Shown here: positions 53,462-62,643 of the stretch, in pieces
Layout of the letters: every line of letters begins with the position of its first letter
How positions within the stretch are numbered: position 1 is the stretch's first letter
DNA from: Actinomycetota bacterium
GTDB taxonomy: Bacteria > Actinomycetota > Actinomycetes > Nanopelagicales > Nanopelagicaceae
DNA length: 64,000 bases
Reading direction: 5' to 3'
NCBI GenBank assembly: GCA_003569265.1
Contig: BGON01000001.1
Span: forward strand, 62,001-126,000
Translations under genes and position numbers: made by a program
The notes under the pieces: generated by a model
Seen by the model: only the letters and a program-made list of their open reading frames with translations
What the model was told of the DNA's origin: nothing
The model's database searches: none

Positions 53462-54883
53462 ATGGAAAAGTTAGCTAACTTCATTAATGGCAAGGCCGTC
53501 GACTCAACATCCGGAGAAACTTCGCCACTTATCAACCCAGCAACTGGCAAAGAGTATGCCCGTGCACCTAAATCTAATGCTGCAGATATTGATTTGGCAT
53601 TCAAAGCTGCAAGTAATGCATTTCCAGGTTGGCGCGATTCTACTCCATCACAGCGTCAAAAAGCTTTACTGAAAATCGCAGATGCTATCGAATCTCGCGC
53701 AGATGAAATCATTGCAATTGAACAACAAACACCGGTAAGCCAATCTCTTTAACTACTTCTGAAGAAGTTCCACCTATGGTGGATCAAATTAGATTCTTTG
53801 CAGGTGCTGCACGAAATCTAGAAGGTAGTCTGCCGGCGAATACATGCCTGGTATGACTTCAATGATTCGACGCGAACCAGTCGGAGTTATTGGACAAGTA
53901 ACCCCTTGGAACTATCCGATGATGATGGCTGTGTGGAAGTGGGCTCCAGCCAATTGCTGCAGGAAATACTGTTGTTTAAAGCCAAGTGATACAACTCCAG
54001 CATCAACTGTGTGGATGGCAAATGTGATGTCAGAGTTTTTGCCAGCAGGTGTTTTCAATGTTGTTTGTGGTGAACGTGAAACAGGAAGAATGCTTGTTGA
54101 ACACAAGCGCCCTGACATGGTTTCAATTACAGGTTCAGTAGGTGCTGGAGTACAAGTTGCTCAATCTGCTGCCACACAACTCAAGCGAGTGCACCTTGAA
54201 CTCGGCGGCAAAGCTCCTGTGGTTGTTTTTGCAGATGCAGATTTAGCTGCTGCAGCTGAAGGCATTGCCATCGCTGGTTATTTCAACGCCGGCCAGGACT
54301 GCACAGCTGCCACACGAGTGATCGTTGAAGCCAGTGTTTATGATGATTTTGTCGCTCTCTTGAGCGAGCAGGCTAAGGGCATTGCTATTGGCTCTCCTGC
54401 AGAAGATGTTTCTTGGGGCCAGTTAATAATGCTAATCAGTTAGCCCGTGTCAGCGCCTTTTTTGATCGCCTGCCTTCCCACGCCAAAGTGATGACCGGTG
54501 GAAAGGCTCTGGATAAGCCAGGTTTCTTCTTCCCAGCAACTGTTGTCGCCGACCTGAAGCAAGATGACGAAATGATCCAGAGTGAAATCTTTGGTCCAGT
54601 CATTACTGTTCAAAAATTTAGCGATGAAGCAGATGCGATTTCAAAGGCCAATGGGGTTGAGTATGGCCTGGCCTCGAGCATTTGGACTAAGGACCATGGC
54701 CGTGCGATGAGATTGGCCAAGGCCTTTGACTTTGGTTGCGTCTGGATCAACACCCATATACCTGTGGTTGCCGAGATGCCACACGGCGGATTCAAGCGCT
54801 CGGGTTATGGCAAGGATCTTTCTTCATATGGATTTGAAGATTACACACGAATCAAACACGTCATGACCAACCTTGGGGCGTAG
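53462..54883 (+). pseudogene. Aldehyde dehydrogenase (aminobutyraldehyde/betaine-aldehyde type), multiply frameshifted
   Basis: Three open pieces join to one ALDH of about 475 residues. Family blocks are VTPWNYPMMMAVWKWAPA, LELGGKAPVVVFADADLA, the catalytic cysteine in FNAGQDCTAATRV, and HGGFKRSGYGKDLSSYG. Breaks are: an A lost in a run near 53727-53729, a base lost near 53827-53829, a C gained near 53949-53951 and a T lost near 53975-53977 (which cancel, leaving a garbled stretch), and a base lost near 54415-54420. The likely role is oxidation of aminobutyraldehyde from putrescine to GABA, given its neighbours. TAGGCT ends seven bases before the ATG. The breaks may be sequencing errors or real decay. 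Confidence 0.82.
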
Positions 54884-58101: not shown

Positions 58102-58934
58102 GCCAAAAGATTAAGGACGCCTCCATCCCAACTATTCCAGCTAAGGCTCGATTCTCCCGTTGGTTTGGGCGCAACTTGCTGCGTATTTATATGATCTTTG
58201 GTTTCACATACCTTTTTATTCCAGTTGCTTACACATTTGTCTTCTCATTTAATGACTCAGGAAAAAGCAATTTGATCTGGAAGGGCTTCACATTAAGTAA
58301 TTGGCAAAACCCTTGCGGAGCGCCGGAGGTTTGTAACGCCCTTGGTAATTCAATAAAGATTGGCTTACTTGCAACTATTTTCTCAACAATTCTTGGCACA
58401 ATGATTGCCTTTGCTCTTGGGCGATATAAGTTCAAGGGCCGCTCTAGTTCAAATCTGCTTATCTTTTTACCGATGGCAACTCCTGAGATTGTTCTCGGTG
58501 CTTCACTACTTTCATTGTTCTTAGTGTTCAAGATTAATCCGGGCTTCTGGCCAACAGTTGTTGCACACGTAGTATTTTGTATCTCCTTTGTTGTGGTTAC
58601 AGTAAAGGCCCGTATTGCATCCCTTGATCCACGTCTTGAACAGGCAGCTATGGATCTCTATGCCAATGAACTTGAAACATTCCGCAAAGTTACTTTGCCA
58701 TTAGTAGCACCTGGAATTGCAGGGGCTGCTCTGCTGGCCTTTAGCCTGTCTTTTGATGATTTTATTATTACTAATTTCAACTCAGGAACCCTGATTACAT
58801 TCCCTAAATTTGTATATGTTTCTGCCGCACGGGGAATTCCTGCACAAGCTAATGTGATTGGTTCTGCGATGTTTTTCTTGGCATTAGCCATAGTTATTGC
58901 GAGTCAACTAGTAAAACGCAAGAAAACCCGCTAA
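58098..58934 (+). CDS. potC: Spermidine/putrescine ABC transporter permease
   Basis: A 278-residue second permease with six predicted helices; the EAA loop is LEQAAMDLYANELETFRKVT. SFDDFIITNFNSG is a PotC-like stretch. It pairs with PotB to form the channel. A 130-base gap with hairpin-forming sequence separates it from the amine oxidase gene. Confidence 0.92.
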   Translation: MSQKIKDASIPTIPAKARFSRWFGRNLLRIYMIFGFTYLFIPVAYTFVFSFNDSGKSNLIWKGFTLSNWQNPCGAPEVCNALGNSIKIGLLATIFSTILGTMIAFALGRYKFKGRSSSNLLIFLPMATPEIVLGASLLSLFLVFKINPGFWPTVVAHVVFCISFVVVTVKARIASLDPRLEQAAMDLYANELETFRKVTLPLVAPGIAGAALLAFSLSFDDFIITNFNSGTLITFPKFVYVSAARGIPAQANVIGSAMFFLALAIVIASQLVKRKKTR

Positions 58935-58985
58935 TATTTCGCTAGTCCACGACGAACTACAGGTTGTTTAAGAAAATCTGCGCTG

Positions 58986-59062
58986 TGGGGTTAGGTTCCG
59001 GAGGACCCGGGCCAACTACGAGTAGTGATTGAAGGGGTGATTCCGGTCAAGGCCGGATAGCG
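58986..59062 (+). promoter_or_regulatory. Hairpin-rich leader before the amine oxidase gene
   Basis: Three stems lie in a row: GGTTC/GGACC (58994-59007, loop CGGA), ACTA/TAGT (59015-59026, loop CGAG) and TCCGG/CCGGA (59042-59057, loop TCAAGG). The first can swap with GGGT/ACCC (58988-59008). The last stem's 3' arm holds the only GGA close to the start codon, so it could hide the ribosome site. It is noticeably GC-richer than its surroundings. No known riboswitch consensus was recognised with confidence. Confidence 0.4.
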
Positions 59063-59064
59063 CG

Positions 59065-60477
59065 ATGGCAACCATCGACCCTTTCGTTCTCAAGCATCTC
59101 TCACAGATGCAGCCGGCTTTGTATTGGCTGGATGAAGATCCCCTTGAACCACAACCAAATCCAACTTTAATTGGTGATGTCACCACAGATTTGTGTGTGG
59201 TGGGTGCTGGCTATACCGGTTTATGGACTGCATTAATTGCAAAAGAACAGAATCCAGAACGCGAAGTAATTATTGTTGAGCAACGTGAAACTGGCGCGGG
59301 TGCCTCAGGGCGAAATGGCGGATTTTGTAGCTATTCATTGACCCACGGTTTTATGAATGGATACAGCAGATTTAAAGATGAGATGGCTGTTATTGAACGT
59401 CTGGGTCGAGAGAATTTAGATCTCATTGAAGAAACTATCAAACGATATGGGATTGACTGTCAATTTGAATGGACCGGCGAGCTACGAATTGCCAATGAAG
59501 AGTGGCAGATTCAAGGCCTAGTAGATGAGGCAAATCTTCGAAACTCTTTTGGAGACAACGTTGAAGTTCTCAATCAAGATGAAATACAGGCACGGGTGCA
59601 CTCACCGTTATCCAAGGCAGCACTATGGGATCCAGATGGAACTGCTTTAGTAGATCCAGCCAGATTGGTCTGGGGATTAGAAAGAGCATGTTTGAAATTG
59701 GGCGTGAAGATATTTGAAAATACCCATGTTGAGTGGTTAGAGCACACAAGTGGCGCAATGATTGTGCACACACCTTATGGTTCTGTTTATGCACAAAAAG
59801 TTGCACTTGCAACCAATGTCTTTAAATCCCTAGTTAAACGCGCTCACAAATATGTTGTGCCGGTTTATGACTTTCAATTAGTCACAGAACCTTTAACTAA
59901 AGAACAGATGAAATCCATTGGTTGGGATGGCCGTGAGGGTCTATCAGAGGCTGGAAACCAATTCCATTATTACCGTTTAACTCAAGATAATGAGATTTTA
60001 TGGGGCGGATATGATGCTATTTATAATTTCCGCGGCAAAGTGCGACAAGAATATGAAACAGATGCTGAGACGTATGCACATTTGGCAGAAGCGTTCTTAG
60101 AAACTTTCCCGCAGTTAAAAGGAGTGAAGTTCACACATGGTTGGGGCGGAGCAATTGATACATGTTCACGATTCTCGCCATTTTGGGGGAAAGCCTATGG
60201 TGGACGGGTGGCATATGTGTTGGGCTTTACTGGCTTAGGTGTTGGCTCGACTAGATTTGGTGCACAAGTGATGTTGGATCTTCTGGATAAGGTTGATAAC
60301 GAACGCACTCGTTTGAAGATGGTTAGAAGCAAGCCGCTGCCATTTCCCCCTGAGCCGTTGAAGTTTATTTTTATCCGCTTTACGCAGTGGTCAATCAACA
60401 GGGCCGATCAAAATCAAGGCAAGCGCAATTTATGGCTGAGATTGCTTGATGTTTTGGGCTTGGGCTTTGATTCTTAA
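59065..60477 (+). CDS. FAD-dependent amine oxidoreductase (DAO family, gamma-glutamylputrescine oxidase-like)
   Basis: A 470-residue flavoprotein. The dinucleotide motif VVGAGYTGLWTA lies near residue 47, followed by EQRETGAGASGRNGGF, the family's FAD-contact segment, and FTGLGVGSTRFG near the C terminus. Such enzymes oxidise secondary amines; next to polyamine transport, ALDH and ureohydrolase genes, putrescine or its gamma-glutamyl derivative is the likely substrate. No gamma-glutamylputrescine synthetase is present in the window, so a direct amine substrate is equally possible. Confidence 0.84.
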   Translation: MATIDPFVLKHLSQMQPALYWLDEDPLEPQPNPTLIGDVTTDLCVVGAGYTGLWTALIAKEQNPEREVIIVEQRETGAGASGRNGGFCSYSLTHGFMNGYSRFKDEMAVIERLGRENLDLIEETIKRYGIDCQFEWTGELRIANEEWQIQGLVDEANLRNSFGDNVEVLNQDEIQARVHSPLSKAALWDPDGTALVDPARLVWGLERACLKLGVKIFENTHVEWLEHTSGAMIVHTPYGSVYAQKVALATNVFKSLVKRAHKYVVPVYDFQLVTEPLTKEQMKSIGWDGREGLSEAGNQFHYYRLTQDNEILWGGYDAIYNFRGKVRQEYETDAETYAHLAEAFLETFPQLKGVKFTHGWGGAIDTCSRFSPFWGKAYGGRVAYVLGFTGLGVGSTRFGAQVMLDLLDKVDNERTRLKMVRSKPLPFPPEPLKFIFIRFTQWSINRADQNQGKRNLWLRLLDVLGLGFDS

Positions 60478-60499: not shown

Positions 60500-61498
60500 A
60501 TGGTTAATCACGGCAATATGTATGGGCCCGATTTCACATTTCTTGGAATCGAGCGCTGTGATTTAGAAATTCCTTCGACCTATGCCGATGCTGATGTGGT
60601 CATTGTTGGTGCACCCATTGATAGCGGAACATCACATCGATCAGGTGCAAAGTTTGGTCCTCAAGCAATACGTGGAGGAGATTATCTTCCTCATGATGCT
60701 GAGCGTCCACATTTAGCTTTGCGCATTGATGCATTAAAGGAGATGAAAGTTGTTGATGCGGGAGATCTATTAATGCCCGGTAGTGATTTAGTTGCCTCGC
60801 TAGAAGTATTAGCTCAAGCTACAGAAAAGATCTCACGAGCAGGTGCAATTCCCGTAATTCTTGGTGGAGATCATTCAATCGCATCTGCAGATGTTGCAGG
60901 AATCGCACGTCATCGCGGTATGGGCAAGATTTCAATGATTCACTTTGATGCACATGCCGATACTGGCGAAGATCAATGGGGAGCATTAGTTGGTCATGGC
61001 ACACCAATGCGTCGCTTGATTGACACAGGAACAGTGCGCGGAGATCGTTTCTTACAGTTAGGTTTGCGCGGTTATTGGCCAGATGCAAAAACCCTAGATT
61101 GGATGCGCGATCAAGGAATGCGCTCATATGAAATGACTGAGATTCACCACCGCGGACTCAATACTGTCCTAGATGAATCATTTTCGATTCTAACCAATGA
61201 GTGCGATGGCGTTTTCTTATCTGTAGATATCGATGTCGTTGATCCAGGAATGGCTCCAGGAACAGGAACTCCCGAACCAGGGGGAATGACTAGTCGTGAG
61301 CTTTTAGAGTCTGTGCGCAGAATCTGTCTTGAACTACCTATTGTGGGTATTGATGTTGTTGAAGTTGCACCTGCTTTTGATAGTGCGGATATAACAGCAA
61401 TTTTGGCGAACCGAGTTGTTTTAGAGGCGCTGAGTGCGATTGCAAAACGCCGTTCAGGAACTAAGTACTCCCCAACACAAAATCTTCTGGATCGATAA
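60500..61498 (+). CDS. speB: Ureohydrolase of the agmatinase family
   Basis: A 332-residue manganese hydrolase. The metal motifs are GGDHSIASAD, HFDAHADTGED and SVDIDVVDPGMAPG. Agmatinase releases urea from agmatine to give putrescine, which would feed the oxidase upstream; guanidinobutyrase, guanidinopropionase and guanidine hydrolase share the fold, so specificity is not fixed. TATTCT ends six bases before ATG 60500, suggesting a separate leaderless start. The stop codon is directly followed by the dxr ATG. Confidence 0.87.
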   Translation: MVNHGNMYGPDFTFLGIERCDLEIPSTYADADVVIVGAPIDSGTSHRSGAKFGPQAIRGGDYLPHDAERPHLALRIDALKEMKVVDAGDLLMPGSDLVASLEVLAQATEKISRAGAIPVILGGDHSIASADVAGIARHRGMGKISMIHFDAHADTGEDQWGALVGHGTPMRRLIDTGTVRGDRFLQLGLRGYWPDAKTLDWMRDQGMRSYEMTEIHHRGLNTVLDESFSILTNECDGVFLSVDIDVVDPGMAPGTGTPEPGGMTSRELLESVRRICLELPIVGIDVVEVAPAFDSADITAILANRVVLEALSAIAKRRSGTKYSPTQNLLDR

Positions 61499-62643
61499 AT
61501 GCGTGATGTAGTTATTTTGGGCTCAACAGGCTCAATTGGAGTTCAGGTCCTTGAAGTCATTGCAAGTAATCCGCAGCTATTTAGAGTCGTCGCAATTTCA
61601 TCGGCAGGAAGTAACCCAGAACTAGTTATTGCCCAGGCTAAGCAATTTAAGGTTTCACATGTTGGCGTCGTAAATAATGCAGAAGTGGTGAGCAAAGCAT
61701 TGCCTGGAATCACAGTCATTGACGGAGCGAAGGCTTCTACGGAAATCGCGGCAATAAACTGTGATGTTGTAGTCAATGCAATACAGGTTCAATTGGTCTT
61801 GGCCCAACCCTTGCAGCCCTAGATGCCGGTAACACGCTTGCTCTTGCCAATAAAGAATCACTAGTTGCTGCTGGAGAATTAGTTATGTCCAGAGCTAGAG
61901 AGCATCAGATTATTCCTGTTGACTCTGAACATAGTGCGATTTTTCAATCTGCATTAGCTGGTAAGAGATCTGAAATAAAGAAGATTGTTTTAACAGCTAG
62001 TGGGGGAGCATTTAGAGATCGCTCCAATCTTGATGGAATTACAGTCGAAGATGCACTTAAGCATCCGACATGGTCAATGGGGGCTGTTGTTACGGTTAAC
62101 TCAGCAACCCTTGTTAACAAGGGTCTTGAAATCATTGAGGCACATTACTTATTTGATTTGCCATACTCAAGCATTGAAGCTGTGATTCATCCACAATCTG
62201 TTGTTCATTCACTTGTTGAATTCAATGATGGCTCAACTATTGCCCAGGCTAGTCCACCAAATATGAGAGGTGCCATTGCATATGCAATGAACTGGCCAGA
62301 TCGATTGAGTAATTCAACTCCGCCGATTGATTGGTCAACCCCACATTCATGGAGCTTTGCACCTATTGATGCCAGACAATTTCCAAGCATTGATTTAGCG
62401 CGCCACTGCGGTGAGATTGGTGGAGGATTGCCTGCGATATTTAATGCTGCTAATGAGGCGGCAGTTGCTGCATTTATATCAAAGAAGCTGGAATTTAAAT
62501 CTATTATTGAAGTTATTGCCACCGTTGTGCAAGATCTTGAGAAAGATTCACCGAAAACTCTCAGAGATTTAGCTGATGTCAGTGCCCTAGAACATGATGC
62601 TCGCACACGTGCACAAGCACATCTACTACGATTGGCCCCATAA
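61499..62643 (+). pseudogene. dxr: 1-deoxy-D-xylulose 5-phosphate reductoisomerase, one frameshift
   Basis: A protein of about 380 residues of the MEP isoprenoid pathway, split by one lost base. The NADPH motif ILGSTGSIGVQ is at the start. After VVVNAI the frame breaks near 61783; adding one A gives NAITGSIGLGPTLAALDAG, then ANKESLVAAGE, SEHSAIFQ and TASGGAFRD in the second piece. Both pieces are fully conserved, which is unexpected for an inactive gene whose product is normally essential. A sequencing error in an AA run is the simplest explanation. It is coupled to the protease gene (TAATG). Confidence 0.9.

What the first reader, a model, noticed from the sequence alone, without database searches (positions are those of the whole stretch)
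58986..59062. Possible structured regulatory RNA before the polyamine oxidase gene
A short, GC-rich stretch with three consecutive stems, an alternative pairing for the first, and a last stem whose 3' arm holds the likely ribosome site occurs in the only sizeable gap of the polyamine island. It does not fit the guanidine, glycine, glutamine or other riboswitch consensus sequences I could recall. If conserved it could be an amine- or guanidino-sensing element.
Basis: inference. Interest (0 to 1): 0.55.

Follow-up and report, generated by a model that had tools for sequence, protein, structure and literature searches.

The report
Candidate riboswitch before amine oxidase gene
A folded RNA leader of about 120 bases, absent from the public RNA-family library, is kept with little change in front of one amine-oxidase-like gene across a family of freshwater bacteria, and looks like an undescribed RNA switch that controls how much of the enzyme is made.

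Summary
The element is real but larger than reported: about 58944 to the oxidase start codon at 59065. A -10 box lies 5-11 nt before its first stem in 53 of 53 Nanopelagicaceae leaders and 9 of 9 of a second family. Stems P1 and P2 (58947-58988), upstream of the finding, covary strongly. P3 carries a 15-nt core: of 70 oxidase-homologue loci 55 have it exactly, none with 1-4 mismatches, 15 with 5-7. A near-consensus Shine-Dalgarno, a hairpin and AUG follow. No Rfam 15 family matches it. Of 116 genome-wide pattern hits, 113 are this leader and 3 are chance. P1-P2-P3 also precede homologous oxidases in a second actinobacterial family. Other orthologues there carry an unrelated conserved leader. 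Best reading: an undescribed cis-regulatory RNA, probably a translational riboswitch for an amine of the polyamine route. Shown: conservation, pairing, covariation, gene association. Inferred: ligand, direction, mechanism. The anti-Shine-Dalgarno switch has modest support in one family and none in the other.

The parts
58932..58937 (+). -10 promoter box TAATAT, overlapping the potC stop codon; transcription start expected near 58943-58946 (inferred)
   Evidence: TAnnnT ends 5-11 nt before P1 in 53 of 53 family leaders (control windows 3-18 of 53) and in 9 of 9 second-family leaders (controls 0 of 9)
58944..59064 (+). whole leader RNA (5' untranslated region of the oxidase mRNA)
   Evidence: alignments A1, A3, A4; models R1 and R2
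58947..58988 (+). stems P1 (58947-58954 with 58981-58988) and P2 (58960-58965 with 58975-58980), separated by a 5-nt bulge at 58955-58959 on the 5' side
   Evidence: P1 95.3% and P2 93.8% of cells paired, 12 of 14 pairs with two-sided changes; six of these pairs significant in the tree-based test when only the 29 proposed pairs are counted
58990..59016 (+). stem P3: outer helix P3b (58990-58995 with 59012-59016, A58993 bulged) and inner helix P3a (58998-59001 with 59007-59010) with loop AGGAC (59002-59006)
   Evidence: P3b 81.3% paired, 3 of 5 pairs with two-sided changes; P3a never varies, so it is not tested by covariation; 58991-59015 significant among the proposed pairs
58997..59011 (+). 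15-nt core UCCGGAGGACCCGGG
   Evidence: exact in 55 of 70 oxidase-homologue loci, 0 of 70 with 1-4 mismatches, 15 of 70 with 5-7
59032..59040 (+). extended Shine-Dalgarno AAGGGGUGA, 24 nt before AUG (Nanopelagicaceae only)
   Evidence: near-invariant columns 93-101 of A1; the match to the 16S 3' end is recalled, not computed
59042..59057 (+). hairpin P5 between the Shine-Dalgarno and AUG (Nanopelagicaceae only)
   Evidence: 86.3% of cells paired although some rows are out of register; only 1 of 6 pairs has two-sided changes
58998..59046 (+). possible competing OFF pairing: 58998-59003 with 59041-59046 and 59005-59008 with 59035-59038
   Evidence: RNAfold MFE of the window sequence; not supported in the second family
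59065..60477 (+). regulated gene: DAO-family FAD-dependent oxidoreductase, 470 aa
   Evidence: PF01266 E 2.1e-57; substrate not assigned

Best explanation
The leader is the 5' untranslated region of the oxidase mRNA and a cis-acting regulatory RNA, most likely a translational riboswitch of an undescribed class. Transcription starts at or just before P1. P1/P2 with its 5-nt bulge and P3 with the invariant AGGAC loop form a compact sensor domain. Binding of a small amine of the polyamine route (putrescine, agmatine, or a product of the oxidase) would change whether the ribosome can use the Shine-Dalgarno just downstream. In Nanopelagicaceae the Shine-Dalgarno is followed by hairpin P5, which shortens the path to AUG; a competing pairing between the P3 core and the Shine-Dalgarno/P5 strand offers a possible OFF state. 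Shown: conservation, base pairing with covariation, promoter position, association with the oxidase gene alone. Inferred: ligand binding, ligand identity, ON/OFF direction, the alternative pairing.
For: Covariation: 91.3% of cells paired against 80.6% in shuffles and 30-50% with slid partners; 147 two-sided cells against 45.5; tree-based test, 2 pairs with E<0.05 among all 2,926 pairs and 7 when only the 29 proposed pairs count. The same P1-P2-P3 with its own compensations in a second family. Core whole or lost: 55 exact, 0 with 1-4 mismatches, 15 with 5-7, of 70. Pattern search over genome contigs: 109 of 116 hits with the oxidase downstream, 4 leaders cut by contig ends, 3 chance. Promoter box at fixed distance in both families. 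Leader kept where the gene stands outside the polyamine island, 4 of 10 surroundings. Loci that lost P1-P3 but keep the ribosome site (L008, L012; L023 and L026 similar).
Against: No ligand, expression or probing data. Folding energy of the single sequence is ordinary. 11 f1 orthologues among the 70 loci lack the core, so the gene can do without it. Only one gene type carries it, so no regulon points to the ligand. The oxidase's substrate is not assigned. The core/Shine-Dalgarno switch: in 86 of 98 family sequences the fold with the site free is the more stable, and second-family complementarity is at chance, 0 of 9 with p<=0.05. P3a, P5 and the core hardly vary, so they are not tested by covariation. 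In the all-pairs tree test only two P1 pairs pass, and some unproposed linker columns score nearly as well (59029-59031, E 0.14).
Confidence: 0.66

Rival explanations
1. Protein-binding leader: a regulatory protein (possibly the oxidase itself) binds the invariant P3 loop and core and controls translation. No small molecule is sensed.
For: A short invariant hairpin loop and an association with a single gene would also fit an autogenous or protein-controlled site. The loop AGGAC holds GGA, as CsrA sites do (recalled).
Against: The conserved part is larger than one hairpin: P1 and P2 with their bulge are under structural selection as well. CsrA (PF02599) is absent from the 16 Nanopelagicaceae genomes tested, all of the window's genus. 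The second family was not tested for CsrA, and other proteins were not examined.
Confidence: 0.22
2. Structured leader without a sensor: a fold that stabilises the mRNA or sets a constant translation level, or an RNA thermometer.
For: P1 sits at the predicted 5' end, where a stem can protect an mRNA. In 86 of 98 sequences the fold with the ribosome site free is the more stable.
Against: A 15-nt core that is whole or lost in 70 loci, and kept between two families whose oxidases are 50% identical, is more than such roles need.
Confidence: 0.09
3. Not an RNA element: a DNA site (operator) or a chance palindrome in the intergenic gap.
For: The core contains palindromic CCGG and CCCGGG; single-sequence folding is ordinary.
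Against: Compensatory changes in P1, P2 and P3; the element lies downstream of the -10 box; it is kept in two families.
Confidence: 0.03

Closest known systems
Spermidine riboswitch, a SAM-I variant (PMC10853860; abstract and introduction read)
   Same: A bacterial leader RNA tied to polyamine genes.
   Different: A variant of the SAM-I architecture that acts by transcription termination before polyamine biosynthesis genes. The present element matches no SAM or other Rfam model, sits before an oxidase gene and carries its ribosome site next to the fold.
potC RNA motif, RF01751 (PMC2864571; passages read)
   Same: A probable cis-regulatory RNA named after a polyamine transporter gene.
   Different: Listed there as marine only; the model is in Rfam and does not match here even at E<=10. 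Here the RNA belongs to the oxidase gene, not to potC.
Guanidine riboswitches I-IV (recalled; the models are expected in Rfam but were not checked one by one)
   Same: Small leaders that sense a cationic nitrogen compound.
   Different: No Rfam match.
   Same: Sits before orthologues of the same oxidase gene: 29 of 30 loci read.
   Different: Different sequence and fold; found in other families and in other genomes of the second family, and in none of the 9 second-family genomes that have the present core.

Membership tests
Riboswitch (general) | Lies in the 5' untranslated region of the gene it accompanies | tested here: met
   -10 box 5-11 nt before P1 in 53 of 53 and 9 of 9 leaders; oxidase start 62-81 nt after the core start in 108 loci. 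The start of transcription itself was not mapped.
Riboswitch (general) | Conserved structure with compensatory changes and a conserved core | tested here: met
Riboswitch (general) | Associated with metabolic or transport genes | tested here: met
   oxidase gene downstream in 109 of 116 pattern hits
Riboswitch (general) | Binds a small ligand selectively without protein | not testable with these tools
   needs probing or binding assays
Riboswitch (general) | Ligand changes expression through mutually exclusive folds | tested here: inconclusive
   a competing fold is possible in the 98 family sequences, but second-family complementarity is at chance; expression not testable
Any of the 4,227 Rfam 15 families | Covariance-model match | tested here: not met
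   window at gathering scores: two tRNAs elsewhere only; 58880-59120 at E<=10: none; 11 loci at gathering scores: none; 6 loci at E<=2: none
Spermidine riboswitch (SAM-I variant) | SAM-I architecture | tested here: not met
   no SAM-I model match; a rare variant could fall below the model's reach
potC RNA motif RF01751 | Model match | tested here: not met
CsrA-regulated leader | Genome encodes CsrA | tested here: not met
   PF02599 in 0 of 16 genomes of the window's genus, 1 of 26 genomes in all; the window's own genome is only 42% complete; second family not tested

The most novel reading that the evidence does not exclude
A new natural riboswitch class for putrescine, agmatine or the amino aldehyde made from them, controlling translation of a polyamine-catabolic oxidase, with a second, unrelated RNA class (M2) in its place before orthologous genes: two independent RNA solutions for sensing the same amine.
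Probability: 0.3. Interest if true: 0.85.

Novelty: new variant of a known kind. Interest (0 to 1): 0.68.

Why it matters
Convincing natural polyamine riboswitches have been rare: PMC10853860 (abstract and introduction read) calls earlier evidence unconvincing. A conserved, gene-specific leader in abundant freshwater bacteria, which carry spermidine/putrescine transporters in all four acI strains of PMC5301498 (passages read), is a directly testable candidate. A second, unrelated leader before orthologous genes would be a natural experiment on how one RNA sensor replaces another.

Tried and rejected
Folding the 77-nt stretch alone gave no signal on either strand. Rfam scans gave no relevant hit. 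For M2, a scan of one locus at E<=10 gave two weak hits (E 0.62 and 3.4), both far below their gathering scores and taken as chance. An upstream peptide was set aside by eye: in the window the frame from GUG 58985 runs to UGA 59030, but in several other leaders the AUG at that place is followed at once by UAG (rows). CsrA control is unlikely for lack of CsrA in the genus. A core/Shine-Dalgarno switch shared by both families was tested and not supported in the second. Weak model hits in G359, G322, G398, G571 (contig 58), G820, G726 and G808, and the pattern hits L173, L207, L208 and L275, are taken as chance: no oxidase at the place, or the match lies in or against coding sequence. A joint alignment of both families (A2) put P1/P2 out of register and was not used. 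Two model searches of many genomes used stricter filters that can lose weak matches, as the tool states, so more distant members may have been missed.

Literature: core string, 0 papers; 'riboswitch' with 'Nanopelagicales', 0 papers. In four broader searches I saw only the ranked listings (20, 15, 20 and 12 rows of 52, 29, 2,427 and 118 papers); none of those rows names such an element. The library is open-access PMC only, so absence from print is not shown.

Full report
What the window is. The region holds an aminobutyraldehyde-dehydrogenase-like gene (in two pieces), PotD/A/B/C-like polyamine transporter genes, a DAO-family FAD oxidoreductase (59065-60477) and an agmatinase-like gene (60500-61498).

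Conservation. The oxidase was sought in 151 genomes of the family; 110 have a match. I read upstream sequence at 70 loci: 30 and 40, two of them (L071, L072) paralogues at 43-46% identity. For the alignment I kept 53, left out 13 without the core (11 f1 orthologues and the two paralogues) and 4 that are masked or cut short (L045, L048, L060, L068). That choice conditions on the core, so I then scored all 70 for the best match to the 15-nt core in up to 450 nt upstream: 55 exact, none with 1-4 mismatches, 15 with 5-7; shuffled sequences gave 4-7 in 69 of 70. Of the 15, L068 is cut by a contig end inside the core and L045 is masked there. The core is kept whole or lost.

Structure. On the 53-row sequence-only alignment (48 distinct rows), 29 pairs in five helices give 91.3% standard pairs (shuffles 80.6%, slid partners 30-50%), 16 pairs with two-sided changes (shuffles 12.9, reached by 25 of 500) and 147 such cells (shuffles 45.5, reached by none). 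I also tested all pairs on 98 distinct sequences, with a null that replays each column's changes on the tree: 77 variable columns, 2,926 pairs. Two P1 pairs (58950-58985, 58951-58984) have E below 0.05. If only the 29 proposed pairs are counted as tests (my rescaling of the same values), seven do: those two, 58961-58979, 58962-58978, 58963-58977 and 58964-58976 in P2, and 58991-59015 in P3b. Some unproposed neighbouring columns in the linker also score (59029-59031, E 0.14), a measure of the noise. P3a never varies and most of P5 hardly varies, so they are not tested by covariation.

Second family. A model of the leader (R1) hit 104 of 251 genomes of the order at E<=0.1, once in 96 of the 104; three of the 104 are weak hits at E 0.01-0.02. 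It hit 25 of 394 genomes of the class: 22 of f1, two of a second, unnamed family f38, and one (G359) inside a coding sequence. In both f38 genomes the same core lies directly before a homologous oxidase, 50% identical to the window's. Of 30 oxidase loci fetched from the order of f38, 9 have the exact core and one (L245) a variant. Of the 17 f38 genomes, 9 have the core; a further copy in one of them (L275) is chance. The 9 f38 leaders form P1, P2 and P3 with their own compensatory changes: 93.7% paired (shuffles 89.9%, slid partners 38-52%), 8 pairs with two-sided changes against 2.6 in shuffles. They lack the AAGGGGUGA site and P5. A model from f38 alone (R2) hit 8 of 394 genomes of the class at E<=0.1: five of f38, one f1 genome (G005, E 0.004, with core and oxidase) and two without core or oxidase. 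In the phylum it hit 3 of 246, none with core or oxidase.

Gene association. A pattern of core, Shine-Dalgarno and P5 searched over genome contigs (84,980 species) gave 116 stretches. 109 have the oxidase downstream by BLAST, 108 of them with the start 62-81 nt after the core start. Four (L138, L145, L183, L204) are leaders cut off by a contig end. Three (L173, L207, L208) are chance. I read ten wider surroundings. Polyamine transport genes lie near in six (L292, L294, L297, L298, L299, L300; in L299 only a potB-like gene some 3 kb away) and not in four: L291 beside pst genes, L293 between a cysteine-synthase-like and a corA gene, L295 beside an aldo-keto reductase, L296 beside genes without a family match. 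The leader belongs to the oxidase gene, not to the operon gap.

Transcription start. TAnnnT ends 5-11 nt before P1 in 53 of 53 family leaders, whether or not potC precedes, against 3-18 of 53 in five shifted windows; in f38 9 of 9 against 0 of 9. Downstream of potC the stop codon itself supplies part of the match. In the window the box is TAATAT at 58932-58937.

Mechanism. Two folds compete in Nanopelagicaceae: P3+P5 with the Shine-Dalgarno free, or the core paired with the Shine-Dalgarno and the 5' strand of P5. Of eight pairs tested for the second fold, all can form in 95 of 98 sequences and seven in the other 3. It is less stable by 3.65 kcal/mol on average and is favoured in 12 of 98; for the window sequence it has the lower minimum energy (-39.6 against -35.4), though that fold also breaks P1 and P2. 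Complementarity between core and downstream sequence reaches p<=0.05 in 66 of 98 family sequences, partly because CCGG recurs, and in 0 of 9 f38 sequences. I hold the switch as a hypothesis for one family only. Natural deletions help: L008 and L012 have lost P1-P3 but keep the Shine-Dalgarno and P5, and L023 and L026 keep a similar remnant, so P1-P3 looks like a removable control domain. The remaining f1 orthologues without the core (L007, L011, L015, L027, L037, L052, L064) show no such remnant by eye.

A second leader. Of the 20 other oxidase loci among those 30, 14 carry another conserved stretch, AAGGGAYUGGUGGGA. It occurs in 36 of 118 genomes of that order (the pattern read backwards: 2 of 118). 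Of the 30 loci read out of 36, 29 have the oxidase start 39-133 nt downstream. A hairpin of at least 5 bp follows in 24 of 30, against 462 of 1,500 shuffles. On an oxidase tree of 49 rows the present leader (24 rows, the variant L245 counted in) needs 6 changes and M2 (14 rows) needs 5; the three f38 rows with M2 sit next to f38 rows with the present leader, which suggests replacement, though repeated loss and gain are not excluded.

Known elements. No Rfam 15 family matches the leader: whole window at gathering scores (two tRNAs elsewhere), the element at E<=10, 11 loci of relatives at gathering scores, 6 more at E<=2. The potC motif RF01751 and the spermidine class are nearest in theme. The acI genome paper PMC5301498 (passages read) searched thiamine, FMN and cobalamin models; the passages seen name no leader for this gene. 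The oxidase is DAO-family; its best NCBIfam model, a putative aminophosphonate oxidoreductase, scores far below its cut-off (239.7 against 632.8 bits), and the nearest solved structures are sarcosine oxidase beta subunits (profile E 2.7e-09; none at 1e-5 with the single sequence). 'Polyamine oxidase' therefore rests on the island alone.

Verdict. A real, conserved cis-regulatory RNA (about 0.95, my estimate), probably a new riboswitch class (0.66), with an amine of the polyamine route as the most likely ligand (about 0.4, inference).

Noticed in passing
L301-L330 (motif near locus position 1501); e.g. L259, upstream of its oxidase: A second, unrelated conserved leader (AAGGGAYUGGUGGGA followed by a short hairpin of varying sequence) precedes orthologues of the same oxidase in a related order: 36 of 118 genomes, 29 of 30 loci read; no Rfam match at gathering scores in seven of these loci.
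   Followed up: partly
L008, L012, L023, L026 (upstream of the oxidase): Leaders that have lost P1-P3 but keep the Shine-Dalgarno and the hairpin before AUG, or a remnant of it: natural deletions useful as controls.
   Followed up: partly
window 53844-54883: The aminobutyraldehyde-dehydrogenase-like gene is split into two overlapping frames, covering profile positions 128-315 and 319-473, while relatives carry one frame of about 475 aa (L292, L297, L298). A frameshift, real or from assembly.
   Followed up: no
window 61499-62643: A gene that reads like DXP reductoisomerase (recalled, not searched against families) is also split into two frames, 61499-61822 and 61885-62643, which points to sequence errors in this incomplete genome.
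   Followed up: no
L300 13045-14397; L298 1-673; L297 1-440: A second DAO-type oxidase (29-32% identical to the first) lies on the opposite strand beside the aldehyde-dehydrogenase gene in some islands.
   Followed up: no
window 59032-59064: An extended Shine-Dalgarno stands 24 nt before AUG with a hairpin in between, conserved across Nanopelagicaceae leaders: a bridged ribosome site worth noting by itself.
   Followed up: partly
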